NCBI GenBank assembly: GCA_017436865.1 | Contig: JAFSCH010000088.1 | Location: forward strand, 1-35,420 | DNA: 35,420 bases | Source of the DNA: Lachnospiraceae bacterium | Lineage (GTDB): Bacteria > Bacillota > Clostridia > Lachnospirales > Lachnospiraceae | Reading direction: 5' to 3' | In this document: positions 6,432 to 19,357 of the stretch, piece after piece | Layout: each line of letters opens with the position of its first letter | How positions within the stretch are numbered: the stretch's first letter is position 1 | The notes under the pieces: generated by a model | Databases searched by the model: none | Seen by the model: only the letters and a program-made list of their open reading frames with translations | What the model was told of the DNA's origin: nothing | Made by a program: the position numbers and the translations under genes

Positions 6432-7613
6432 ATGAAGATACTTGTTATTGGAAATGGATTTGATTTAGCACATGGATTACCTACGAAGTATACAGATTTT
6501 TTAGATGTAGTGGAGAGTTTTATTTCAATAACAAATACTCCTCATATCATGGCAAATGGGGGATTAAATAATGTAGCTAAACCTAAAAATCAATTCTTGG
6601 ATAGATTAATTTTTGAAGAACCTACTTTATGTCTCGAATTCAAAAAGATGATACAGAATAATTTTTGGATTGAATATTTTACGAAATGTGGGACTTATAC
6701 AAAAGAAAATTGGATAGATTTCGAGAGTGAAATATCAAGGATAATACAATTATTAGATGATATAAAAGTATTAACCGAGAATGGTGACAATGTTTGGTCT
6801 ATTGCAGATAATAGAACAACTATTATTAAAAATGTGGTAAATGTATCTAAAAAGAAACTAGAAGATGTTTTTTTAGATTTAGAAAAAATTAATGAGTTTG
6901 TAGTTGTTTTGGATAAAGATTTAAAACGATTAATCAGAGCATTAGAGATATATTTGTGTGAGTATGTTGAAAAAAGTAATTGTACTGTTATATCACCAGA
7001 TATTTCAAATATTCATTTTGATAAAATATTAAGTTTTAACTATACAGATATTTATAAAAGGCAATATGACCCAAAGGAAGAGTTGGATTATGACTATATT
7101 CATGGTAGGGCAAATGTTCAAAATTCAATGGAATCCAATAATATGGTATTAGGGATTGATGAATATTTGTCTTGTGATAGGAAAAATAAGGATACTAGTT
7201 TTATAACATTTAAAAAATATTATCAAAGAATACATAAGGAAACAGGATGTAAATATAAAGATTGGGTTGATAGTATTCGTGAAGATGCAAGTTATTTCTC
7301 TGGTGATAATAAGGTTGTTTTAAATAAACTTACATCAAGAAAGAATAATGGGAAGTATGAGTCATATAAAAAATACACACATGAAGTTTTTATCTTTGGA
7401 CATTCATTGGATGTTACAGATAGTGATATTCTAAGAGATTTAATTCTAAATGATAATGTATATACTACAATCTATTATTTAAATAAAGATGTAATGGGAC
7501 AACAGATTGCGAATCTTGTTAAAGTGATAGGGCAGGATGAATTGATAAGAAGAACTGGTGGCAATGCTAAAACAATAGAATTTAGATCTCAACAGGAGAT
7601 GGTGAAGATTTAG
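6432..7613 (+). CDS. abiH: AbiH-family abortive infection protein
   Basis: This 393-residue protein begins MKILVIGNGFDLAHGLPTKY, the diagnostic opening of the bacteriophage abortive infection AbiH family, with the family's C-terminal block FIFGHSLDVTDSDILRDL near residue 325. AbiH blocks phage growth in Lactococcus by an unknown mechanism. The length fits the family. The ATG follows AAAGGAG at a good distance. It is the first gene of defence-like module 1 and lies 12 bp before a CoiA-like gene, so the two are probably co-transcribed from the promoter at 6329. AT content is high like the rest of the module. Confidence 0.92.
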   Translation: MKILVIGNGFDLAHGLPTKYTDFLDVVESFISITNTPHIMANGGLNNVAKPKNQFLDRLIFEEPTLCLEFKKMIQNNFWIEYFTKCGTYTKENWIDFESEISRIIQLLDDIKVLTENGDNVWSIADNRTTIIKNVVNVSKKKLEDVFLDLEKINEFVVVLDKDLKRLIRALEIYLCEYVEKSNCTVISPDISNIHFDKILSFNYTDIYKRQYDPKEELDYDYIHGRANVQNSMESNNMVLGIDEYLSCDRKNKDTSFITFKKYYQRIHKETGCKYKDWVDSIREDASYFSGDNKVVLNKLTSRKNNGKYESYKKYTHEVFIFGHSLDVTDSDILRDLILNDNVYTTIYYLNKDVMGQQIANLVKVIGQDELIRRTGGNAKTIEFRSQQEMVKI

Positions 7614-7625
7614 GTGAAGATATTA

Positions 7626-8642
7626 ATGAAAAACCAAAATATGATATATGCCATTAAAAATGGAGAAATTGTACATATTTCAGAAGTCGAAAGTGGGTTA
7701 AAATGTGAATGTAGATGTCCAGCATGTGGGGAAACACTTATTGCTAGGAAGGGAAAAAAAGTTATTCATCATTTTGCACATAAAAGTACTGAGGAATGTG
7801 AATATGGTTATCAAACTTCTTTGCACTTAGCTGCAAAGGAAATAATAGCCGAAAATAAACAGATTAGTGTACCCGCACTATTTTTGACTCTACCTGGAAA
7901 TGGAAGAGAAGTATTAATTGAAGATGAAAAGGTAATTAATGTCTCTGATGTAATATTAGAAAAGAAAATTAATGATATAGTACCAGATATTTTACTAGTA
8001 ACAGATATCGGACAGATAATAGTTGAGATTTATGTGACACATGAAATCGATAATGAAAAAAAGAGAAAAATTAAACGAATAGGTATCCCTACAATAGAAA
8101 TTGACTTAAGTAAATTAGAGAGAAATATAACAAAGGAAGCATTATGTAAAGAGCTGTTATTTGAAAACGATAATAAAAGCTGGATATATAATGGAAAAAG
8201 AGAAATATCTTACAAAAAATTTCTTGATGTTTCAGATTGGAAGCCAATTATCGTAAGAGGATATGCTTCTCATGTTGATTATTGTCCAATTAAAAGAAGA
8301 GTATGGAAAGGAAAGCCATATGCTAATTTTCTTGACGATTGCTATGGATGTGATTATTTTGTAGGTTACAAAAGGAATAGAAATAAAGAGGATGAGCAAG
8401 ATCAAATATTATGCTCAGGAAAAAATAGAGTGGGTTCTTTAGAAGATTTTGATGTGCCATTAGAAAATAGACTTCAAGCATATAATATGAAAAGAGAAGA
8501 AGAGAAATACGAATTAATTGGACAAGGGATATGTCCGCAATGTGGGTATGATTTAAAAATAAGACAGGGAAAATTTGGTGAATTTTTTGGTTGTAGTAAT
8601 TATCCACATTGCCAATTTACATTTAGTTATGATGAAAAATAG
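7626..8642 (+). CDS. CoiA-like nuclease with topoisomerase-type zinc finger
   Basis: This 338-residue protein has an N-terminal cysteine cluster (C27, C29, C31, C34) and KVIHHFAHK, as in the competence CoiA-like family. Next comes a nuclease-like core with PD at 120-121 and VEIYVTHEID from 133, a PD-(D/E)xK variant in which the lysine is replaced. The C-terminus carries a four-Cys finger, GICPQCGYDLKIR ... FFGCSNYPHC, like those of bacterial topoisomerase I. I chose ATG 7626, since AGGTGA at 7612-7617 is well placed; a GTG at 7614 is possible. Its place after AbiH suggests an anti-phage role rather than competence, which is inference. Confidence 0.78.
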   Translation: MKNQNMIYAIKNGEIVHISEVESGLKCECRCPACGETLIARKGKKVIHHFAHKSTEECEYGYQTSLHLAAKEIIAENKQISVPALFLTLPGNGREVLIEDEKVINVSDVILEKKINDIVPDILLVTDIGQIIVEIYVTHEIDNEKKRKIKRIGIPTIEIDLSKLERNITKEALCKELLFENDNKSWIYNGKREISYKKFLDVSDWKPIIVRGYASHVDYCPIKRRVWKGKPYANFLDDCYGCDYFVGYKRNRNKEDEQDQILCSGKNRVGSLEDFDVPLENRLQAYNMKREEEKYELIGQGICPQCGYDLKIRQGKFGEFFGCSNYPHCQFTFSYDEK

Positions 8643-8667
8643 AGATAAATGGATATGGGGATAAGAT

Positions 8668-9285
8668 ATGGATTTTAGTGAATGGAGAAATAGATATAAA
8701 AATAGAAATGATATTTCCTCAAGGTTAACCCATTTAACAAAAGGCGATACATATGAAGATGCTTTTAAGAACTTGCTAAAAATACTTGAAGAGAAAACTA
8801 TAGTAGGTAGTACGACGGAAAGTGGGTTCATTATTGGAAATAAACCAGCAGTATGTCTGCAAGAAGCACCATTAAATGCAATAGCAGAGAATTTATTGTA
8901 TGAAAAGAAATTGCAAGAGCAGGAAGGAGGAAAAGTAAGATATTATGCTTTGGGATTACGATTTAATAAAATGTGGTGTTATAAAAAAGGCGGTAGACCA
9001 GTTATTTACGAAGAAAAGGAATTGATGAAATCATTATTGCCAGAAGAAGAATATTGGCGAATAGTTAATTATAATTTGTCGGACATGAAACATGTGATTG
9101 ACTGGACACATGAAAGAGAATGGAGAGTTCCAGAAAAATTAGAATTTGAATATAGTAATATTGAGGTTCTTGTCCCTTCTAATAAGTATTATAAGAGATT
9201 TATAGAATATTGCATTCAAGAGGACAAGTTGGATATGCTACAAGAAATAAATGGAATCGTTGTATTAAACACGATTTTTTATTAG
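8668..9285 (+). CDS. Uncharacterised protein, possibly ADP-ribosyltransferase fold
   Basis: I do not firmly recognise this 205-residue protein. Its layout resembles DUF2971 and DarT-like proteins of the ADP-ribosyltransferase superfamily: an early LTHLTKG with H22, then GFIIGNKPAVCLQEAP (about 53-68), GGRPVIYEEK (108-117), and a late IDWTHEREWRVP with E149 and E151, followed by a strand VLVP. In that superfamily a His near the start and a late Glu contribute to NAD binding and catalysis. No signal or membrane segment is seen. It lies 25 bp after the CoiA-like gene and 14 bp before a SEC-C-like mini gene, so it belongs to the AbiH operon. A role as an NAD-using effector is inference. Confidence 0.6.
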   Translation: MDFSEWRNRYKNRNDISSRLTHLTKGDTYEDAFKNLLKILEEKTIVGSTTESGFIIGNKPAVCLQEAPLNAIAENLLYEKKLQEQEGGKVRYYALGLRFNKMWCYKKGGRPVIYEEKELMKSLLPEEEYWRIVNYNLSDMKHVIDWTHEREWRVPEKLEFEYSNIEVLVPSNKYYKRFIEYCIQEDKLDMLQEINGIVVLNTIFY

Positions 9286-9299
9286 GAGAAAGGGTTGAC

Positions 9300-9443
9300 A
9301 TGTTTATTAGTGATAACGAAAAGTATCCATGTGGATCTAGAAAACAATATGAAGATTGTTGTAAACAGTATATTGACAGTTTATATGATGATTATAATGA
9401 GGCTATGGTATATAAAAGCATAAGTCTGAATTTATTATATTAA
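9300..9443 (+). CDS. 47-residue SEC-C-like mini protein
   Basis: The sequence MFISDNEKYPCGSRKQYEDC and onward contains the SEC-C zinc-motif pattern PCGS-x-K-x-Y-x-x-CC, but the first Cys of the usual C-x-C is replaced by Tyr. SEC-C motifs are often small tails on SecA and on defence-associated proteins. ATG 9300 follows AGGAGA at 9284-9289, which overlaps the stop codon of the previous gene, so translation is likely coupled. A longer frame from 9210 overlaps the upstream gene and is not needed. It may be a free-standing adaptor or the remnant of a larger gene; 100 bp of non-coding DNA follow. Confidence 0.6.
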   Translation: MFISDNEKYPCGSRKQYEDCCKQYIDSLYDDYNEAMVYKSISLNLLY

Positions 9444-9469
9444 GCCAGAATATCAATATATTTTATGTA

Positions 9470-9498
9470 TTGTAAATGAAGGGAATCTTTTATATAAT
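9470..9498 (+). promoter_or_regulatory. Promoter of the ATPase-nuclease pair
   Basis: TTGTAA (9470-9475), a 17-bp spacer and TATAAT (9493-9498) lie 48 bp before the ATPase start. This makes the following pair a separate transcription unit within module 1. Confidence 0.65.
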
Positions 9499-9545
9499 TT
9501 GAGTTATAAAATAATAGGATTTAATATTTTAAGGGGATGAATAGA

Positions 9546-10850
9546 ATGAGAAATGAAATCATTATACAAGATTTTGGACCAGTAAGAGAAGCAAAAATTG
9601 ATTTAAATAAAAATTTTCAAATATATATTGGGGCACAAGCGTCAGGAAAAAGCACTATTTGTAGAGTGGTTTATTTTTGCCAGAAAATTAGAGATTATAC
9701 GTTAGATTTTTTGATGAACGAGCAACAATTTACTGAAAATCATAAAAATGAATATTTAAATAATTATTTTAAGTATTTAACTAAACAATTTATGGGATGC
9801 TTTGGAAAAACAAAGCATATGCAAAAATTTACAATAAAGTATTTATTCGAGAATAAAAGAATAAGTATATTTTTAAATAAAGATGGGTATGTACGATTTT
9901 CTTTTGATGAAATTTTAAAAGAAGAATTATCAGAATTGATTGATGAGACTGCTGATATGTTTTTGAACAAGTTTGATAACGAAGTTGTATCCATCATGGA
10001 TAATATTAAAGCTATTGCAGTAATGAAGAAACACCTTAACGAAAGATTGATTTCTATTTTTGAGAATGAAAGAGAAATTATATATATACCTGCTGGTAGA
10101 AGTTTGTTGGCTACTATGTCTGAACAGTTGCAAGATGTGTCTGTTGATGAAATGGATTTAACAATGCAGGAATTCATTTTATTAATAAGGACCACAAAAA
10201 ATAAATTTGGAACAAAAATACCAGAAATGGTTAGAGATTATACGAAGACTGTAAAGGGACAAATTAATAATTTAGCGTTAGATCAAGCGTATGAATTAAT
10301 AAAGAAAATATTAAGAGCTGATTATACTAGTGAAAATGATGGAGAAAAGATTTATTTTGACGAATATCATTGGGTTAAATTGATGTATGGTTCATCAGGT
10401 CAACAGGAAGCATTATGGATTTTGATGTTAGCTTTTGCAATAATTTTAGAAAAAAAGAAATCATTTATTGTTATTGAAGAACCAGAAGCACATTTATTTC
10501 CTACTGCTCAAAAAGATATTATTAGTTTAATTTCTTTAATGGTAAATTCTACTAATAGTAAAGTAGTGATTACAACACATAGTCCATATATACTTACTTC
10601 TACGAATATTTTGTTATATTCAGATAAAGTTGAAAGTGCACATGTAAAACATGAAAAGACTATAATTCCTAGAAGTTTTAGAGTTGCATTTAAGTCTTTT
10701 GTAGCGTACAAAGTTGGCGACTTTGAAAATTCCATTGAATCTTTATTAGATGTAGAAAGTCATATGATAAATACAGATTATATTGATGAAGTGTCATCAA
10801 TTACGAATGAAGAGTTGGATGATTTAATTGATATGGAGATACAAGGATGA
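9546..10850 (+). CDS. ABC/OLD-like AAA ATPase (AAA_15/AAA_21 type)
   Basis: This 434-residue protein is an SMC/ABC-class ATPase. It has a Walker A (GAQASGKST, about 29-37), an ABC-like signature (YGSSGQQEAL, about 281-290), a Walker B (FIVIEEPEAHLFP, about 307-319) and an H-loop THSPYIL near 345. No TOPRIM domain follows, unlike OLD or GajA nucleases. I chose ATG 9546, because AAGGGG at 9531-9536 touches the ATG at 9537. The stop overlaps the ATG of the next gene (ATGA), so the two products are translationally coupled and probably act together. Similar ATPase plus partner pairs are common in anti-phage systems such as Septu; this pair is not one I can name. Confidence 0.85.
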   Translation: MRNEIIIQDFGPVREAKIDLNKNFQIYIGAQASGKSTICRVVYFCQKIRDYTLDFLMNEQQFTENHKNEYLNNYFKYLTKQFMGCFGKTKHMQKFTIKYLFENKRISIFLNKDGYVRFSFDEILKEELSELIDETADMFLNKFDNEVVSIMDNIKAIAVMKKHLNERLISIFENEREIIYIPAGRSLLATMSEQLQDVSVDEMDLTMQEFILLIRTTKNKFGTKIPEMVRDYTKTVKGQINNLALDQAYELIKKILRADYTSENDGEKIYFDEYHWVKLMYGSSGQQEALWILMLAFAIILEKKKSFIVIEEPEAHLFPTAQKDIISLISLMVNSTNSKVVITTHSPYILTSTNILLYSDKVESAHVKHEKTIIPRSFRVAFKSFVAYKVGDFENSIESLLDVESHMINTDYIDEVSSITNEELDDLIDMEIQG

Positions 10851-11389
10851 TTTGTGATAATTTGAAAAAATGTATAGATGGACAATTGGCATCAGTTCCA
10901 ATTAAGAATTGTAGTAATCATAATATTGGTAAATGCATCGAGTCATCAGATAATCGTTCATCGGTAAAGTGTGAAGAAAATAGAAAAAAATATGTATTTG
11001 AAAATACTAAAAAGAATCATGTGATTTCATATAAGATGGATGAGGGGATTGTTGTTGAGGATAGAACGGTTCCGTCTAATACGAATAAATGTGATTATCT
11101 GTTTGTGGTAAATGATTTAGAATTGACGGCAATTTTAACGGAATTAAAGGGGGTTAATGTTCAAAAATCATTAGAGCAAATAAACGCAACTTTATTATTA
11201 TATAAAGATGTATTTAAAAATTTTAAGCGAGTGTATGCTAGGTCTATTGTTACATCTTCAACGCCAAATCTTAAAGCAACTCCGGCATTTACAAATTTGG
11301 AAAGAATGTTGCGTCAGAACTATAATGGAAATATAAAAATATGTGAGAGGCAGTTTTTTGAAAAAGACATAGAGTTGGATAAAAAATAA
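10847..11389 (+). CDS. Putative PD-(D/E)xK nuclease partner of the ATPase
   Basis: This 180-residue protein overlaps the ATPase gene by four bases. The core reads KCDYLF (D83), then AILTELKG with E99 and K101, then LEQINATL with Q111. This D...ExK spacing with a following helix matches the PD-(D/E)xK nuclease fold. The N-terminal 50 residues contain seven Cys or His residues but no clear zinc motif. No signal peptide is present. The likely model is an effector nuclease kept in check or loaded by the ATPase, which is inference from gene coupling. Its stop codon lies two bases before the repeated leader of the HTH cassette, which is an unusually tight module boundary. Confidence 0.65.
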   Translation: MICDNLKKCIDGQLASVPIKNCSNHNIGKCIESSDNRSSVKCEENRKKYVFENTKKNHVISYKMDEGIVVEDRTVPSNTNKCDYLFVVNDLELTAILTELKGVNVQKSLEQINATLLLYKDVFKNFKRVYARSIVTSSTPNLKATPAFTNLERMLRQNYNGNIKICERQFFEKDIELDKK

Positions 11390-11446
11390 CTTGCAATCCA
11401 CCTCATTTAGAGTTATAGACACACCTAAGGAAGGGAGGTGTGTTCA
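11390..11446 (+). repeat. HTH-cassette leader, copy 1, with SD-masking hairpin
   Basis: The leader contains CACCTCATTTAGAGTTATAG and is near-identical at 19054-19111 and 24160-24215. ACACACCT (11419-11426) pairs perfectly with AGGTGTGT (11436-11443), and the 3' arm overlaps the GGGAGG ribosome binding site of the HTH gene. The hairpin could control its translation, or the palindrome could be a DNA operator. Confidence 0.75.
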
Positions 11447-11695
11447 ATGAACTCAGAAAACAAAATCTATCAGATTCCAGAATTCATAAGTGAGTATATT
11501 TCAGTAAAGGAAGCTGCCAGAATTATGGGTAAGGATTATCAATTTGTTTGGTTAGGACTAATTGAGGGGATTTTACCAATTGGTACTGCATATAAAATGA
11601 ATGACTCAAGTGTTTATAGTTTTTATATCAGTCCAAGGCTGTTCTGTGAGTACACGGGGTATGTGTATCGTGGTAAAAAAAGAGCAGTAAAATAA
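11447..11695 (+). CDS. Small phage-type HTH protein, copy 1
   Basis: This 82-residue protein has an excisionase-like helix-turn-helix core: ISVKEAARIMGKDYQFVWLG, then LIEGILPIGTA, then a wing ending FYISPRLFCEYTGY. Proteins of this pattern are common in phages and conjugative elements of Clostridia, where they act as small DNA binders; the target here is unknown. The ATG at 11447 follows GGGAGG, which is buried in the 3' arm of a hairpin. The protein is about three quarters identical by eye to that at 19112-19357, and a truncated third copy lies at 24216. It follows directly after the ATPase-nuclease pair. A hairpin at 11701-11724 follows its stop. Confidence 0.8.
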   Translation: MNSENKIYQIPEFISEYISVKEAARIMGKDYQFVWLGLIEGILPIGTAYKMNDSSVYSFYISPRLFCEYTGYVYRGKKRAVK

Positions 11696-11700
11696 GAAAT

Positions 11701-11724
11701 GGGCACTTGATTTCTCAAGTGCCC
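11701..11724. terminator. Bidirectional hairpin, likely end of the toxin mRNA
   Basis: GGGCACTTGA (11701-11710) and TCAAGTGCCC (11715-11724) are perfect complements. On the minus strand the stem is followed by a T-rich run (ATTTCTTATTTT), so it suits termination of the minus-strand toxin transcript. It also closes the HTH gene on the plus strand, but without a T-run. Confidence 0.7.
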
Positions 11725-11735
11725 TAGTATATAAT
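11707..11735 (+). promoter_or_regulatory. Promoter of the antitoxin RNA
   Basis: TTGATT (11707-11712), a 17-bp spacer and TATAAT (11730-11735) form a strong promoter that drives transcription into the 3' end of the toxin gene. No plus-strand gene follows before the terminator at 11843. Confidence 0.7.
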
Positions 11736-11741
11736 CTACTT

Positions 11742-11843
11742 AGAAAGGTGCTCGGAATTGAAGTTTCCGATTGCCCTCAGTATTGAATATCTATTTTGAA
11801 ATAGCATCCTCATCTTTAGGCGGAAGGGATGCTATTTCTTTTT
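11742..11843 (+). ncRNA. Putative cis-antisense antitoxin RNA
   Basis: A transcript of about 100 nt is predicted from the promoter at 11707-11735 to the terminator hairpin at 11798-11838. It holds no worthwhile reading frame. It is fully complementary to the last codons and 3' untranslated region of the minus-strand toxin mRNA, the layout of Gram-positive type I antitoxins such as RatA or SR4. Ends are inferred from signals only. Confidence 0.6.
11798..11843 (+). terminator. Terminator of the antitoxin RNA
   Basis: GAAATAGCATCC (11798-11809) pairs perfectly with GGATGCTATTTC (11827-11838), followed by TTTTT. The 3' arm also encodes the stop codon of the toxin on the other strand. Confidence 0.85.
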
Positions 11844-11918
11844 GTTATTATGATTGTCTATGTACGACAGTGCCGCGAAAATTACTAATAACAGAGTAAG
11901 TACTTCCATTACGTTCAT
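11832..11918 (-). CDS. Type I (holin-like) toxin peptide
   Basis: A 28-residue peptide begins MNVMEVLTLLLVIF, spans the membrane once (about residues 5-20) and ends in a basic tail with NNKKK. This pattern, a short acidic-hydrophobic start, one helix and a Lys-rich end, is that of the TxpA/BsrG/holin-like type I toxins of Firmicutes, which damage the membrane or envelope. The ribosome binding site AAGGGGGTG (minus strand, 11925-11933) is six bases from the ATG. A strong minus-strand promoter lies at 11998-12026 with a LexA-like box, and an antisense RNA covers the 3' end. The peptide is too short for ordinary gene calling. Family assignment is by pattern. Confidence 0.75.
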   Translation of the reverse strand: MNVMEVLTLLLVIFAALSYIDNHNNKKK

Positions 11919-11997
11919 GGGCATCACCCCCTTAAGTACTAGAGGGCATCTAACATCGGAAAATCGCATCCATCTTTCTGTTCAATTATATGAGTAT

Positions 11998-12026
11998 ATT
12001 ATAGCATATATCGAACATTTGTTCAA
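11998..12026 (-). promoter_or_regulatory. SOS-controlled promoter of the toxin gene
   Basis: On the minus strand TTGAAC (12021-12026), a 17-bp spacer and TATAAT (11998-12003) form a near-consensus promoter. A palindrome GAACAAATGTTC (12013-12024) overlaps the -35 and matches the Gram-positive LexA core GAACRNRYGTTY. LexA would repress the toxin until DNA damage; this is inferred from the site. The predicted 5' leader is about 70 nt. Confidence 0.75.
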
Positions 12027-12083
12027 GGCGTTTGTCTTTTTATTTAAGGTTAAAATGGGATTAAATTCTTATAAAAACAGACA

Positions 12084-12117
12084 TGCAATCCAATCTGTTT
12101 AGAGTTATAGAACATAC
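12084..12117 (+). repeat. Partial copy of the HTH-cassette leader
   Basis: GCAATCCAATCTGTTTAGAG and the following TTATAGA match the leader seen at 11393 and 19056, but no HTH gene follows. It is probably a decayed copy. The region 12118-12225 after it holds only the structured repeat described next. Confidence 0.5.
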
Positions 12118-12147
12118 ATAGCGATTAATGAAGTAACGGAAAGGAAG

Positions 12148-12190
12148 TTCTAGGAATTCTATAGTAGTTAGTGCTTAGAATTGGTGAGTT
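12148..12190 (+). repeat. Structured repeat, short form
   Basis: TTCTAGGAATTC and, 25 bp later, GTAGTTAGTGCTTAGAATT recur at 19573 and 19663-19683. The arms TTCTAGG and CTTAGAA can pair with one G-U; in the longer copy the same pairing is TTCTAAG with CTTAGAA, a compensatory change that hints at RNA structure. Confidence 0.45.
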
Positions 12191-14303: not shown

Positions 14304-16748
14304 ATGTATAGACATTTTTTGGGAGCTTTTGGAAATCGTAGTTTTATACGTCCTATATATGAAATTAGCGAGGATGGAAATTTATTTGAAGTAGGTGATA
14401 GTCGTTGGGAACTGTTTCCTAATGGTGGAACAGTGTCTTTGGCAAATTTGTCGGATGGTGATACTGATGACATAAAGAATAGATTGTTAAAATTTAGAAT
14501 TGATTTAAATAAGGATTTTCATCCTGGATATGATGCATATAGTGAAAATAGCAATAGGTATCAAATTTCTTTATCGGCAATTGATGATTTTGATAAAGAT
14601 GAAATAATTGAGATTATTGATATAGATTATTCAATTGAAGAATTTTTAAATGACAAGACAAAGAGAATAATACGTATTAAACACAAGCCTAATAAACAAA
14701 TATTATTAAGATATGGTCAAGAGTGTTATGGACCATTTGAGTTTATGATTTCTGATATCGAGGATACATATGGAGATGAAGCATATTATACAATTAAGGT
14801 GTTTGTAAATACTGGAACAATAAATAAATATAAAGCGTTTGATTTAGAAAGAATAATTCTAGATGGAAATTTTTCTATAAGAAGAAGTGATAAATTACAA
14901 TTTATTTTTAATTTGGATAAACTTAGTTGTGTAGAACCAGCAGAAAAAATTGAATATTTTGACAATGAAGAATTAGCTGATTTCTTTAAGGACATATTTG
15001 ATAAATCTCTTGCAATAGAAAATCTTGCGGATATTAGAGAACAATTTTTGCAGATAGCAGATTCTTTTTCAGAGGATGGACAATTAACGGATACTAGACT
15101 TCAAAGAATATGTGAAATATTACAAACATCTGTGGATTTAAGTGATTATAAAATGCGTTTGATGGAAGAATATTTTAGATTGCATCCAAATGCAAAGAAT
15201 GATAAAGAAGAATATTTGAGCACACATGAAGAGCTTTTAGATAATATGATTCGTGAAGATGTTCGTTATGATGAAAAGTTGAAACAGATAACGGAAGAGT
15301 TATTGTGTTTGAAAAATGAGAAGGAGCAACTTGAAGAGGAAATAGAAGATAAAAAGAAGAAACTTAGTGATAAACAAGCAGAATTAGATAAGTTAGGCGA
15401 GCAAGCAATTAATGAGAAAAGACAAGAAATAGAAAAATTGCAGCAAGATTTAGTAAAAGAAACTAAAGCACTTGAAAAGACAAAACTTGAATGCAAAGAT
15501 TTAGAACGAGCTCGAGACGTTTGGAAAAATGCAAGAGATGAGATGCAAGAGGAGTATAGAAAGGTTTCAAATGATTTAAATGCAAAAATAATTGAATGGG
15601 CAGCTGCTAATAGAAGTGCAGAAATTACTAAATTATTGGTATCACAACTTGAAATGCCAGAGGAAAACATAGAAGAGACTGTACCTAGTAGAATAGTTAA
15701 TTTAAATAATGATTTAACGGCAGAACAGATTGTAGATATTCTTTGTAAAAAAATGAGAGAAGCAGGGCGTTCAATTAAAAAAGATGATGCATACAACTAT
15801 CTAATTAGTGTATGTCAAAATTATATAACAGTATTTGCTGGAGAACCAGGGACAGGAAAAACATCTTTATGTAAATTATTAGCTAAAGCTTTAGGATTGT
15901 ATGATACAAGATTCGCTGAGATATTAGTTGAAAGAGGTTGGACTTCATCTAAAGACTTAGTTGGATATTATAATCCTTTAACAAAAGAAATTGAAAAGAC
16001 ACAACCTAGGTTCTTTGAATGTATGGAACAATTAAACATGGAAAGAAATAATAATATAGTTGAGGCTCCATATTTTGTATTACTGGACGAAGCAAACTTA
16101 AGTCCAATAGAATTTTATTGGTCTCATTTTAACTATTTTAATGATGACACATCACATCAAACAATATCTTATCCTAATGGCATAAAATTTGAATTTGGGT
16201 CTGAATTAAAGTTTTTAGCTACAATCAATTATGACCAAACAACATCCAATCTTTCGCCTAGATTTTTAGATCGAGCGTGGATTGTATCTATGGAATCAGT
16301 GTCAGTTGATGAGATTGTTAATGGACTGTCGGATGATTCCGTTGTGGAAAATAATTCCGAGATTATTTCATTAGAAGTTTTAAATCAAGTTTTTGATTGG
16401 CATAATGTTAGGGATAAGAAAATGAATCAAGTAACTAAAAATAGATTGGATAGAATTGTAGATAAGATGAGAGAAGGAAATCATATAATTAGTCCTAGAA
16501 GTTTGCATGCTATAAGTCATTTTTATCTTATTGCTGAGAAGTATATGTCATCAAAAGAAGTTGCCCTTGATTACGCAGTATCTCAAAAAATTCTGCCATG
16601 TATAAATGGTAGTGGAAAAAAATATGGTGAGTTTTTGAATGGATTGATGAATATTTGTAAGGAAAATCAGTTAAATAAAAGTGCTAATATAATTTCTAAA
16701 ATAATAGAAAGAGCTAATCATGAATTTTATGGTTTCTTTAGTATTTAA
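14304..16748 (+). CDS. McrB-like AAA+ ATPase with coiled coil
   Basis: This 814-residue protein is the motor of a McrBC-like restriction system. Residues 1-300 form an unrecognised, probably DNA-recognising part. Residues about 320-430 are a strong Lys/Glu-rich coiled coil. The AAA+ module runs from about 495: Walker A GEPGTGKTS (513-521), Walker B YFVLLDEANLS with D595 and E596, sensor 1 LATINYD with N642, and an arginine in SPRFLDRAW. McrB proteins normally use GTP; the nucleotide cannot be told here. The coiled coil between the N-terminal part and the motor is unlike E. coli McrB and recalls the coiled-coil McrB relatives called CoCoNuT systems. The ATG follows AAGGAGAG. The nuclease gene follows after 18 bp. 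Confidence 0.85.
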   Translation: MYRHFLGAFGNRSFIRPIYEISEDGNLFEVGDSRWELFPNGGTVSLANLSDGDTDDIKNRLLKFRIDLNKDFHPGYDAYSENSNRYQISLSAIDDFDKDEIIEIIDIDYSIEEFLNDKTKRIIRIKHKPNKQILLRYGQECYGPFEFMISDIEDTYGDEAYYTIKVFVNTGTINKYKAFDLERIILDGNFSIRRSDKLQFIFNLDKLSCVEPAEKIEYFDNEELADFFKDIFDKSLAIENLADIREQFLQIADSFSEDGQLTDTRLQRICEILQTSVDLSDYKMRLMEEYFRLHPNAKNDKEEYLSTHEELLDNMIREDVRYDEKLKQITEELLCLKNEKEQLEEEIEDKKKKLSDKQAELDKLGEQAINEKRQEIEKLQQDLVKETKALEKTKLECKDLERARDVWKNARDEMQEEYRKVSNDLNAKIIEWAAANRSAEITKLLVSQLEMPEENIEETVPSRIVNLNNDLTAEQIVDILCKKMREAGRSIKKDDAYNYLISVCQNYITVFAGEPGTGKTSLCKLLAKALGLYDTRFAEILVERGWTSSKDLVGYYNPLTKEIEKTQPRFFECMEQLNMERNNNIVEAPYFVLLDEANLSPIEFYWSHFNYFNDDTSHQTISYPNGIKFEFGSELKFLATINYDQTTSNLSPRFLDRAWIVSMESVSVDEIVNGLSDDSVVENNSEIISLEVLNQVFDWHNVRDKKMNQVTKNRLDRIVDKMREGNHIISPRSLHAISHFYLIAEKYMSSKEVALDYAVSQKILPCINGSGKKYGEFLNGLMNICKENQLNKSANIISKIIERANHEFYGFFSI

Positions 16749-16766
16749 TGCTGAGAGGATAGAAAG

Positions 16767-18968
16767 ATGAAATTATGCATTTTAAGTCCTGATAATCAAG
16801 TTTCAGAGGTGTTGATGAGTAATAAGCAACCGACACTTGATCGTATCAATAATGAGATATTATTGTTCGAAAATTATCGATATAAATTAATTATACATGA
16901 TGATATAAATTATGAAAGCATGGAGTTGTTTTTAGGTGATTATTCTATTCCATTACATCATAATACACATACAGATTGTTTTGAAACGGATGTAGATTTG
17001 ATTTTTGAAGGCTGCTATGATTTAGCATATATGACTATATATGTTGATGACAAATATGATGATGAAAATGTTTTCTTTACTGAGTATTTTAGGATTGCAA
17101 CAACAAAACAAACTACTAAACAAGTTGAGCTGATGTTACAAGAAATAGAAGAAAATTTGCCTAATTTTTTAGAAGTCTGTTTTAGCAAAAATAAAAAGAA
17201 ATCAGGCTTAATTAAAAATGATATGCGTTCAGTTTGGAATACTTTACATATTCTAGATGAAATCATAAATGCGTATGAAGAAAATTTTGGGAATTTTTCT
17301 AATCATAAAAAAGCAACAATAGAGCATGTTGCAACTATTGTAGATGCTCGTTCAATGAGAATAATCGATCAAGAAAGTTTGAGATGGATAGCATGTAATC
17401 CGGAAAATTTACATCTTACAAAAAAGAATACTGGAATAGTTATTAATGAGCAAAACTATATGCCATCTAAAGTTAAAACATATGTCTCAAAATATTCTTA
17501 TAATGTATATGAAAATCAAATTGTGCTAGGTTTTCTCCAAAACCTAATAAGTTATTTAGAAAATCAAATTGTCGGATTTGAACGAAAAATTAAAGAGTTG
17601 GAAAATATTCCAGAGGCCATTATTACACAATTACCAAATACACATGAACTAACAGGAAGATGTGTATATATTTATTATAAAGGAATAATGAAAAAATTTT
17701 GTAAGAGAAAAGAAATGCTTCAAGAAATTTATAATAAGTATGAAAGAATGTTAGATTGTTTACCATTAAAGGTGTATGGAATACCTCAACTCACGAATAC
17801 ATTTAAGCAAGTGTATCATTATAGGGTTTGTTATGAGTATATTGTAAAATGGTTTGAAGCAGGCGATTATACATTCGAGCATTTGAATTATTTGTTTAAA
17901 TTAAAGACATTAAGTCGGATTTTTGAATATTTTTGTTTAATAAAATTTCAAATAGCACTTTCTTCATGTGGCTATGTCTTAAATGAAGCAAATAGACTTA
18001 TTTATGATGACGAAGATAATGTTGAAGAAATAAATAATCAGTATATTTATAGTGGTAACGGTTATGAAATTACATTATTGTATGAGCCTACTATCTGGAC
18101 GAATAAGACATGTATTGGAATTAATTTGTATTCAACAGGCTATAATTTTTCAAAAGGTAAGTGGAGTGAAAAATGGACACCAGATTTTGTAATAAAGATT
18201 TTATATAATTCAAAAGAATATTATTATATTTTGGATGCAAAATTCTCTACTTTTAATAATGTAAGAAAATATTATATGGCAGAACTTGTTTTAAAATATA
18301 GTTCTCAAATAGCTTCCATAAATAAATGTTTTTCAGATGTTATTGGTATAGGTGCGGTCTATCCAAGTGATGAAGAAAAAATTTATCATTTTAAAAAGAA
18401 CAAAGTCTCAAGTAAACAATCTTTTCCAAAGTTTTTTTCTATGACAATCATTGAAGGTGAGAAGGGGAATATCGTTTTAAAAGAAAACTTAAAAGAATTA
18501 TTGGGACAGATAGAAGTTTTACAAAGTGAAAAAGAGGAAAACGGTTTTTCAATAGCAGAATATAAGAGAGAACAATTTGGTAATATTAATTTACAGCAGA
18601 ACAGCATAGGAGATATAAGAGCCACCCAAAATGAAAGTCATACTTTAGAGCAAGATTTTTTAGAAAAAGTTATTAATGAAAATGAATATTCGAGTAGCAA
18701 GATAAATGGGAAAAAATGTTTTTATTATGGAAAAAATCTTTGTATGTTGAAACGGGCTAGGTGTGACGCAGATGAAAAGGGGTGTAAAGATTATATTTCA
18801 AAAAGATCAAAAGAATTGTTAAAAAAGGAGGAATCATGTAGAAATTTTATAAAGTATACAAGGAGAGGTAAAGTGAGTAGAGTGGAATGCTCTGTATCTG
18901 GACTTGCGGGATGCGTTGGTCCTGATGTATGCAAATTTTGTATGCAAAAAAATAAAAGTAGATCTTAA
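16767..18968 (+). CDS. McrC/DUF2357-like nuclease with Cys-rich tail
   Basis: This 733-residue protein should be the DNA-cutting partner of the McrB-like protein. Its first 350 residues fit the DUF2357 type, with YSYNVYENQIVLGFL at about 243-257 as the characteristic motif. The nuclease core has P472-D473 and D490-A491-K492, the PD-(D/E)xK signature also found in McrC. After residue 645 the protein has an unusual tail with nine cysteines (C651, C659, C666, C673, C691, C708, C716, C722, C725), probably binding zinc. The ATG lies 18 bp after the McrB-like gene with AGAGG upstream. No terminator is obvious before the next HTH cassette. Confidence 0.82.
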   Translation: MKLCILSPDNQVSEVLMSNKQPTLDRINNEILLFENYRYKLIIHDDINYESMELFLGDYSIPLHHNTHTDCFETDVDLIFEGCYDLAYMTIYVDDKYDDENVFFTEYFRIATTKQTTKQVELMLQEIEENLPNFLEVCFSKNKKKSGLIKNDMRSVWNTLHILDEIINAYEENFGNFSNHKKATIEHVATIVDARSMRIIDQESLRWIACNPENLHLTKKNTGIVINEQNYMPSKVKTYVSKYSYNVYENQIVLGFLQNLISYLENQIVGFERKIKELENIPEAIITQLPNTHELTGRCVYIYYKGIMKKFCKRKEMLQEIYNKYERMLDCLPLKVYGIPQLTNTFKQVYHYRVCYEYIVKWFEAGDYTFEHLNYLFKLKTLSRIFEYFCLIKFQIALSSCGYVLNEANRLIYDDEDNVEEINNQYIYSGNGYEITLLYEPTIWTNKTCIGINLYSTGYNFSKGKWSEKWTPDFVIKILYNSKEYYYILDAKFSTFNNVRKYYMAELVLKYSSQIASINKCFSDVIGIGAVYPSDEEKIYHFKKNKVSSKQSFPKFFSMTIIEGEKGNIVLKENLKELLGQIEVLQSEKEENGFSIAEYKREQFGNINLQQNSIGDIRATQNESHTLEQDFLEKVINENEYSSSKINGKKCFYYGKNLCMLKRARCDADEKGCKDYISKRSKELLKKEESCRNFIKYTRRGKVSRVECSVSGLAGCVGPDVCKFCMQKNKSRS

Positions 18969-19053: not shown

Positions 19054-19111
19054 TACTTGCAATCCACCTCATTTAGAGTTATAGACACACCTAAGAAAGG
19101 AGGTGTGTCCA
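19054..19111 (+). repeat. HTH-cassette leader, copy 2, with SD-masking hairpin
   Basis: It matches 11390-11446. ACACACCT (19085-19092) pairs with AGGTGTGT (19101-19108), and the AGGAGG ribosome binding site overlaps the 3' arm. The loop differs from copy 1 while both stem arms are unchanged. The stretch 18969-19053 before it is AT-rich with no clear signal. Confidence 0.75.
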
Positions 19112-19357
19112 ATGAACTCAGAAAACAAAATCTATCAGATTCCAGAATTCACAGGCGAGAATATTCCGTTAAAGGAAGCTGCTAGAATTATGGGAAAGGA
19201 TTATCAGTTTGTTCGTATAGGAATCATTGAAGGTTTTTTACCAATCGGGACTGTATGTAGAATGCCTGGCTCAAACAGCTATACATTTTACATCAGTCCA
19301 AGGCTGTTCTGGGAATACACGGGGTATGTGTACCGTGGTAAGACAAAAGAACAGTAA
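19112..19357 (+). CDS. Small phage-type HTH protein, copy 2
   Basis: This 81-residue protein is a paralogue of the one at 11447-11695. It shares MNSENKIYQIPEF, the core KEAARIMGKDYQFV, EGFLPIGT and the C-terminal FYISPRLFWEYTGYVYRGK. Differences cluster around residues 14-20 and 35-58, while the helix-turn-helix stays intact, so both copies are probably under selection. The ATG follows AGGAGG, which is part of the leader hairpin. It lies after the McrBC-like pair in the same relative place as copy 1 after the ATPase-nuclease pair. Its DNA target is not known. Confidence 0.8.
   Translation: MNSENKIYQIPEFTGENIPLKEAARIMGKDYQFVRIGIIEGFLPIGTVCRMPGSNSYTFYISPRLFWEYTGYVYRGKTKEQ

What the first reader, a model, noticed from the sequence alone, without database searches (positions are those of the whole stretch)
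11701..12026. SOS-controlled type I toxin-antitoxin locus
A 28-residue toxin-like peptide lies on the minus strand with its own ribosome binding site and near-consensus promoter. A LexA-type palindrome GAACAAATGTTC overlaps the -35. On the other strand a strong promoter and terminator predict a 100-nt RNA fully antisense to the 3' end of the toxin mRNA. The parts match the layout of txpA/ratA or bsrG/SR4, while the SOS control recalls tisB.
Basis: partly seen in the sequence, partly recalled or inferred. Interest (0 to 1): 0.74.

Follow-up and report, generated by a model that had tools for sequence, protein, structure and literature searches.

The report
DNA-damage-controlled toxin and RNA antitoxin
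A gut-type bacterium carries a tiny gene for a probable membrane-damaging peptide that looks set to be switched on by DNA damage and held in check by a small antisense RNA, and related copies in many relatives share the same layout.

Summary
The genome has 3 copies of the peptide gene; 70 of 397 genomes of the family have a match; 3 of 391 in a class-wide draw, all of the same family. An exact GAACNNNNGTTC sits at -115..-95 in 13 of 56 type A modules and 13 of 73 further ones, against 0.015 and 0.0 in shuffles. A matrix from the host's own lexA and recA sites ranks the toxin's box first in the window. 87 of 129 type A modules have no box, and 1 of 65 type B modules has one, so SOS control is optional. 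I read it as a new type I toxin-antitoxin family in its SOS-controlled form. Toxicity, transcripts and LexA binding are untested.

The parts
11832..11918 (-). 28-aa toxin-like peptide ORF (hydrophobic core, Lys-rich C-terminus), stop codon included
   Evidence: family match in 70 of 397 genomes
11927..11933 (-). Shine-Dalgarno AAGGGGG
11942..11948 (-). anti-SD element UGCCCUC in the 5' leader; can pair with the SD or with the 3'UTR
11998..12026 (-). toxin promoter TTGAAC-17-TATAAT with TG before the -10
12013..12024 (.). LexA-type palindrome GAACATTTGTTC on the -35
11696..11991 (-). predicted toxin mRNA (about 296 nt; start inferred from the -10)
   Evidence: fold z-score -6.0
11701..11724 (-). 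toxin mRNA terminator; its DNA also contains the -35 of the antisense promoter
11707..11735 (+). antisense RNA promoter TTGATT-17-TATAAT
11742..11843 (+). predicted antisense (antitoxin) RNA, about 102 nt; start inferred from the -10
11798..11843 (+). antisense RNA terminator, 13-bp stem and U5, overlapping the end of the toxin ORF on the other strand
11937..11991 (-). 5' arm of the predicted mRNA panhandle (leader)
11730..11782 (-). 3' arm of the predicted mRNA panhandle; overlaps the first ~40 nt of the antisense RNA and its -10

Best explanation
A type I toxin-antitoxin module of a family that in my whole-genome draws occurs only in this bacterial family (Lachnospiraceae by most titles of named relatives), in its SOS-controlled form. 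In undamaged cells LexA sits on the -35 and keeps the toxin promoter low, while the antisense RNA is made constitutively. Leaky toxin mRNA is silenced because the antisense RNA is fully complementary to its 3'UTR, and because the leader's UGCCCUC closes the SD in a hairpin. After DNA damage LexA is cleaved and toxin mRNA outruns the antisense RNA. Its 3'UTR, no longer captured, pairs with the leader and pulls UGCCCUC off the SD, and the peptide is made and acts on the membrane. Supported by computation: the parts, their conservation, the box and its register, the co-evolving arms across the family, the predicted exchange of partners of UGCCCUC. Inferred: transcripts, LexA binding, translation, toxicity, and the direction in which the fold-back acts.
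For: 3 copies in the genome, alike from the toxin terminator to the box with unlike flanks; all three have a box, one of them with one mismatch. Box exact in 13 of 56 and 13 of 73 type A modules at -115..-95 against 0.015 and 0.0 in shuffles; -10 hexamer at the same distance in 28 of 34. Host lexA and recA carry like sites, and the matrix made from them ranks the toxin box first. Antisense promoter in 120 of 125, terminators in 65 and 91 of 125. Leader/3'UTR duplex mean -44.3 kcal/mol against -21.0 for dinucleotide shuffles, none of 50 shuffles as good in 36 of 38 modules; own pairing beats all 20,000 permutations among 37 modules; type B likewise, 63 modules, own -47.1 against -37.2, none of 5,000 permutations. 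UGCCCUC pairs with the 3'UTR at 0.80 in the full mRNA and with the SD at 0.84 when the 3'UTR is masked, means of 37 modules.
Against: No expression, binding or toxicity data. 87 of 129 type A modules have no box within one mismatch between -125 and -20, and of 65 type B modules one (L128) has an exact one, at -118. In the own-against-others duplex test the window's module (-37.2 against -38.3) and the genome's other two copies (-35.3 against -39.3; -43.6 against -43.7) are among the 7 of 38 that do not do better with their own partner. The local SD hairpin is not more stable than shuffles in the window (z -0.1) and only weakly so in others. The SD stays mostly paired in every predicted state (mean unpaired 0.14 in the full mRNA, 0.03 masked; more open in the full mRNA in 32 of 37), so the switch model alone does not show translation. 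For the window's module UGCCCUC:SD pairing in the masked state is only 0.30. RNAalifold did not find the panhandle. Gene conversion between the arms could also keep them alike. Genome contamination is given as 7.68%, so lexA/recA and the window might not share a cell.
Confidence: 0.7

Rival explanations
1. Same toxin-antitoxin module, but the fold-back is inhibitory as in hok or aapA: the full-length mRNA is inert and must be cut (at the leader by RNase III acting on the panhandle, or elsewhere) before translation.
For: SD mostly paired even in the full-length fold (mean unpaired 0.14); very stable mRNA fold, z -6.0; H. pylori aapA mRNAs are inert through a 5'-3' interaction until 3' trimming (PMC6733600, passages).
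Against: The 3' arm carries an SD-like sequence that binds the anti-SD, not an anti-SD that binds the SD; an mRNA without its 3'UTR is predicted to be closed (UGCCCUC:SD 0.86, mean of 37), so 3' trimming would not open it.
Confidence: 0.35
2. The box binds another repressor (a LexA paralogue or an element's own regulator) and not the main LexA.
For: The genome has two further LexA-like ORFs below the family cut-off, one on contig C113 within 2 kb of the third module; other no-box modules share a different upstream element (TTGAGAAATAT..GTATTC).
Against: The sequence fits the host's lexA and recA sites and recurs across many genomes.
Confidence: 0.15
3. A small membrane protein with a regulatory function (for example growth or competence control) with antisense control, not a toxin in the killing sense.
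For: The main NCBIfam likeness is the competence inhibitor ComI: 16 of 32 members at E<=0.1, best 2.4e-4.
Against: The one score shown is far below the family cut-off (window 15.7 of 55 bits), and tight antisense and SD-closing control fits a harmful product.
Confidence: 0.15
4. Chance arrangement of an ORF, promoters and a palindrome.
For: In the window alone the palindrome occurs in 29 of 100 shuffles.
Against: Matches in 70 of 397 genomes and the counts.
Confidence: 0.02

Closest known systems
tisB/istR-1 (and dinQ/agrB, symE/SymR) of E. coli
   Same: LexA-controlled toxin with a constitutive antitoxin RNA, inhibitory leader structure; TisB has 29 aa, DinQ 27 aa (PMC8309996, passages; PMC5848175, passages)
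   Different: IstR-1 is recalled as acting on the tisB leader, here the antisense RNA covers the 3' end; the host here is of a Gram-positive kind; no sequence relation was tested
bsrG/SR4, bsrE/SR5 and txpA/RatA of B. subtilis
   Same: convergent pair overlapping at 3' ends (layout recalled), ~100-nt antisense RNA; SR4 also changes the structure around the bsrG RBS (PMC5848175, passages)
   Different: no LexA control named for them in those passages; the peptide does not pass the Hol_Tox model, which I recall as the Pfam home of such toxins
aapA/IsoA of Helicobacter and hok/Sok
   Same: 5'-3' long-distance pairing in the toxin mRNA and anti-SD elements (PMC6733600, passages)
   Different: the 3' arm binds the anti-SD, not the SD, and the antisense RNA resembles the leader
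ComI of B. subtilis plasmid pBS32 (NF052249)
   Same: model of 30 positions, weak profile likeness at the C-terminal half of the window peptide
   Different: window score far below cut-off; ComI's own toxicity and RNA control are recalled, not seen (the listings held no such paper)

Membership tests
Type I toxin-antitoxin system | small hydrophobic peptide ORF with RBS and promoter | tested here: met
   conserved
Type I toxin-antitoxin system | antisense RNA gene overlapping the toxin mRNA | tested here: met
   as predicted DNA elements only:
Type I toxin-antitoxin system | peptide is toxic and the RNA neutralises it | not testable with these tools
   needs expression
LexA (SOS) regulon | LexA-type operator on the promoter, like the host's own sites | tested here: met
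LexA (SOS) regulon | LexA binds and DNA damage induces | not testable with these tools
   needs gel shift and RNA
Hol_Tox (PF16935) | score above the Pfam gathering cut-off | tested here: not met
   window 11.1 against 23.3 bits; 2 of 32 members at E<=0.1, best 0.048
ComI (NF052249) | score above the NCBIfam cut-off of 55 bits | tested here: not met
   window 15.7 bits; 16 of 32 members at E<=0.1, best 2.4e-4 (bits shown for the window only)
Rfam antisense or toxin mRNA families | match at gathering score | tested here: not met
   0 in the window; one sub-threshold hit in 11600-12150, BjrC68, 19.6 of 39 bits
Fst/par | direct repeats that make toxin mRNA and antitoxin RNA complementary near their 5' ends (recalled) | tested here: inconclusive
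   the arms found are inverted, so the antisense RNA resembles the leader; no direct repeat of 20 nt or more inside 11700-12030 was listed; no comparison with Fst peptides was made

The most novel reading that the evidence does not exclude
The antitoxin RNA began as an inverted copy of the toxin's own leader and works as a decoy for it: leader and antisense RNA compete for the same 3'UTR, so capture of the far end of the mRNA decides whether the SD is open. LexA operators have been gained and lost many times in front of this cassette, plugging one RNA switch into or out of the SOS response. As far as my searches show, it would be the first SOS-controlled type I system outside E. coli and its relatives.
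Probability: 0.4. Interest if true: 0.8.

Novelty: new variant of a known kind. Interest (0 to 1): 0.64.

Why it matters
The passages that I read name LexA-controlled type I toxins only from E. coli (PMC6563280; PMC5848175; PMC8309996). A natural series of related modules with and without the LexA site would let one test what DNA-damage control adds to a type I system in gut bacteria. The co-evolving mRNA arms give a case for studying how an antisense RNA acts at a distance on a ribosome site. Named carriers with the box, such as Roseburia faecis M72 (locus L126), make it testable.

Tried and rejected
Chance palindrome: rejected, although the window alone would not reject it. Membership of Hol_Tox, ComI, PHROGs or Rfam families: not met or no match. 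A phage home: the one good 'phages' hit of two, MT835472, looks chromosomal around the module (phosphofructokinase-like and other housekeeping-type ORFs, a transposase-like ORF, my reading of ORFs, no family scan), so I do not use it as proof of phage carriage; one IMG/VR locus with the box, L235, has integrase-, HNH- and sigma-like ORFs (same caveat). Plasmids: no match. Exact GAACNNNNGTTC at -52 to -67 in seven modules I read as RNA hairpins in the leader, not operators, and did not count as boxes. RNAalifold of 38 modules found the SD hairpin, the 3'UTR hairpin and the toxin terminator but not the panhandle, nor the antisense-terminator stem, which I put down to alignment of variable stretches; pairwise duplex energies are the support instead. 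Papers: search listings (searches listed 20 of 43, 47 and 27); passages only were read; no paper was read whole.

Rows dropped before counts: one search made 87 distinct modules (25 bits or more) of 103 hits; one search used 86 of them (L085 has too little upstream sequence). One search used 108 of 112 new distinct modules (four too short upstream), 13 hits having been removed as already seen; two of its 13 exact boxes are from the viral and phage collections (L235, L237). One search found all elements in 40 of 86; two (L028, L067) were dropped, L054 also for the permutation, and L065 had no recognisable SD (37 used). One search scored 125 type A and 62 type B modules with enough 3' sequence, and 63 type B for duplexes. 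One search used 122 type A modules. Types A and B were sorted by a motif in a script, not by a tree. Sets 1 and 2 may hold the same species. The set includes some decayed or truncated copies.

Full report
What is there. On the minus strand at 11832-11918 lies a 28-codon ORF, MNVMEVLTLLLVIFAALSYIDNHNNKKK, with AAGGGGG before it. Its promoter, TTGAAC-17-TATAAT with TG before the -10, spans 12026-11998; on the plus strand TTGATT-17-TATAAT spans 11707-11735; the toxin terminator is at 11724-11701. The plus-strand RNA, about 11742-11843, folds at -31.6 kcal/mol (z -2.9) with a 13-bp terminator stem. The -35 of the antisense promoter lies within the DNA of the toxin terminator. The palindrome GAACATTTGTTC at 12013-12024 overlaps the toxin's -35 and is the only exact GAACNNNNGTTC in 35 kb, but 29 of 100 shuffles also have one.

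Is the box a LexA site of this host? The genome has a clear lexA (237 bits) and recA (572 bits). Upstream of lexA I read CGAACAGTTGTTTG, AGAACAGCTGTTTG and CGAACAAATATTTG; just before the conserved part of recA, TGAACGTTTGTTCT and CGAACAGATGTTTT. A matrix from these five sites ranks the toxin box first in the window, 16.6 bits against 11.0 for the next and 0.03 such positions per shuffled window. Genome-wide, CGAACNNNNGTTC occurs 6 times against 31 for the pattern read backwards, and 2 of the 6 are at copies of this module. The third copy has TGAACATTTGTTTG. Caveat: contamination of the assembly is given as 7.68%.

Relatives. The peptide has 3 matches in its own genome and matches in 30 of 200 and 70 of 397 genomes of the family (draws that overlap); in a draw from the class 3 of 391 match, all in the same family and all seen before. 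Of the 80 titles shown most say Lachnospiraceae or genera I place there (Roseburia, Kineothrix, Hungatella, Catenibacillus); a few say Clostridiaceae, Eubacteriaceae, Oscillospiraceae, Tenericutes or Alistipes, which I did not follow up and which may be mislabelled bins. I sorted modules by a script motif into type A (as in the window, GATGCC/GCATCC) and type B.

The box across relatives. In set 1, 13 of 56 type A modules have an exact box at -115..-95 from the start codon and 18 one within one mismatch; shuffles give 0.015 and 0.27; of the other thirteen 21-nt windows counted, twelve have no exact hit and one has one; type B has 0 of 30. In set 2, after removal of modules already seen, 13 of 73 are exact and 16 within one mismatch, shuffles 0.0 and 0.3, type B 0 of 35. 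Exact hits also lie in two other windows of set 2 (4 and 3 type A modules; L208 in both), which read as leader hairpins, and one type B module, L128, has an exact one at -118. Together 26 of 129 type A modules are exact and 34 within one mismatch at -115..-95, and 87 have none between -125 and -20; in 28 of the 34 the best -10 hexamer starts 21 bases after the box start. TTGAAC is then both -35 and half-site; the second half-site, which a promoter does not need, is what marks the operator. On a tree of 122 type A modules the box (32 of 122) changes 17 times (shuffled labels 28.2, minimum 21): it follows descent but has come and gone often.

Fold-back of the mRNA. The leader (TATAATTGAA..AGAAAG..GGATGCGATTTTCCGAT..TGCCCTC) reads like the antisense RNA and its -10 (TATAATCTACTTAGAAAG..TTTCCGATTGCCCTCAG). 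The leader is therefore complementary to the toxin's own 3'UTR. In 38 modules the duplex averages -44.3 kcal/mol, -38.7 with 3'UTRs of other modules and -21.0 with shuffles; own beats others in 31 of 38, and in 36 of 38 none of 50 shuffles is as good. The three copies of this genome are among the 7 that do not beat others (window -37.2 against -38.3), so the sign of co-evolution comes from the family, not from this locus. Among 37 modules own pairing (-44.9) is better than every one of 20,000 permutations (mean -39.5). Type B, with other letters, shows the same (63 modules, own -47.1, permuted -37.2, none of 5,000). The window's mRNA folds 6.0 sd below shuffles with these arms paired. Gene conversion between arms could also keep them alike, and RNAalifold on the alignment did not find the panhandle.

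A switch at the ribosome site. UGCCCUC in the leader can close the SD in a local hairpin, found by RNAalifold although its stability is near that of shuffles (window z -0.1), or pair with GAGGGCA in the 3'UTR. In predicted ensembles of 37 full mRNAs it pairs with the 3'UTR at 0.80 and with the SD at 0.19 on average; with the 3'UTR masked, as by the antisense RNA, SD pairing is 0.84; without the 3'UTR, 0.86. The SD itself opens only from 0.03 to 0.14, and the window's own module is less clear-cut (0.30 SD pairing when masked). Hence I infer, with moderate trust, that capture of the 3'UTR by the antisense RNA closes the SD, and keep the hok/aapA-like reading as the main rival.

Copies and cross-talk. 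The three copies share 27-29 nt of identical sequence in the antisense region, so one antisense RNA may act on more than one copy (inference). The module lies beside AbiH-, AriA- and McrBC-like genes (the McrBC likeness is my reading of an AAA protein beside a DUF2357 protein).

Comparison with print. The Clostridia review names SOS-inducible type I systems from E. coli only, in the passages I saw (PMC6563280); the yonT/SR6 paper likewise names LexA boxes for E. coli tisB, symE and dinQ (PMC5848175, passages). Searches for LexA-controlled type I systems in Gram-positive hosts or for Lachnospiraceae systems gave nothing on point in the titles and abstract starts listed. This covers one open-licence library and capped lists.

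Verdict. The finding is real and well read. It belongs to a type I toxin-antitoxin family, by layout, that I could not place in Pfam, NCBIfam, PHROGs or Rfam, and the window has its SOS-controlled form. What is firm is the anatomy and its conservation; what is open is toxicity, transcription, LexA binding and the sense of the RNA switch.

Noticed in passing
6432-11389 and 14304-18968: Defence-island look: AbiH-like ORF (Pfam AbiH 1.3e-40), AriA-like ATPase (PADLOC 2e-30), AAA protein like PDC-M26A (8.1e-33) beside a DUF2357 protein, McrBC-like in my reading.
   Followed up: partly
11430-11684 and 19095-19349: Two 84% identical 255-nt copies holding a short ORF of ~82 aa (excisionase-like in my reading; no Pfam match above cut-off), each with a 98% identical 46-nt stretch upstream (11389, 19055); a third, 63% alike stretch at 12081-12126 just beyond the toxin promoter.
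   Followed up: partly
L041:1438-1716 (genome contig C113): Short ORF like the LexA DNA-binding part (53.8 bits, below cut-off) within 2 kb of the third module copy.
   Followed up: no
L065, L066, L145, L157, L207, L211, L216 upstream of the toxin: A group of no-box modules shares TTGAG(A/C)A and a downstream ATTC between -35 and -10, perhaps the operator of another repressor (by eye).
   Followed up: no
L076, L120, L134, L148, L172, L206, L208 leaders: GAACnnnnGTTC hairpins in the leader just before the anti-SD element.
   Followed up: no
168-1577 minus: Large ORF that reads like an ISL3-type transposase (my reading; no family scan).
   Followed up: no
L039:923-1330 minus: LysM-like ORF divergent from lexA, resembling yneA in place (my reading), sharing its LexA-type sites.
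   Followed up: no
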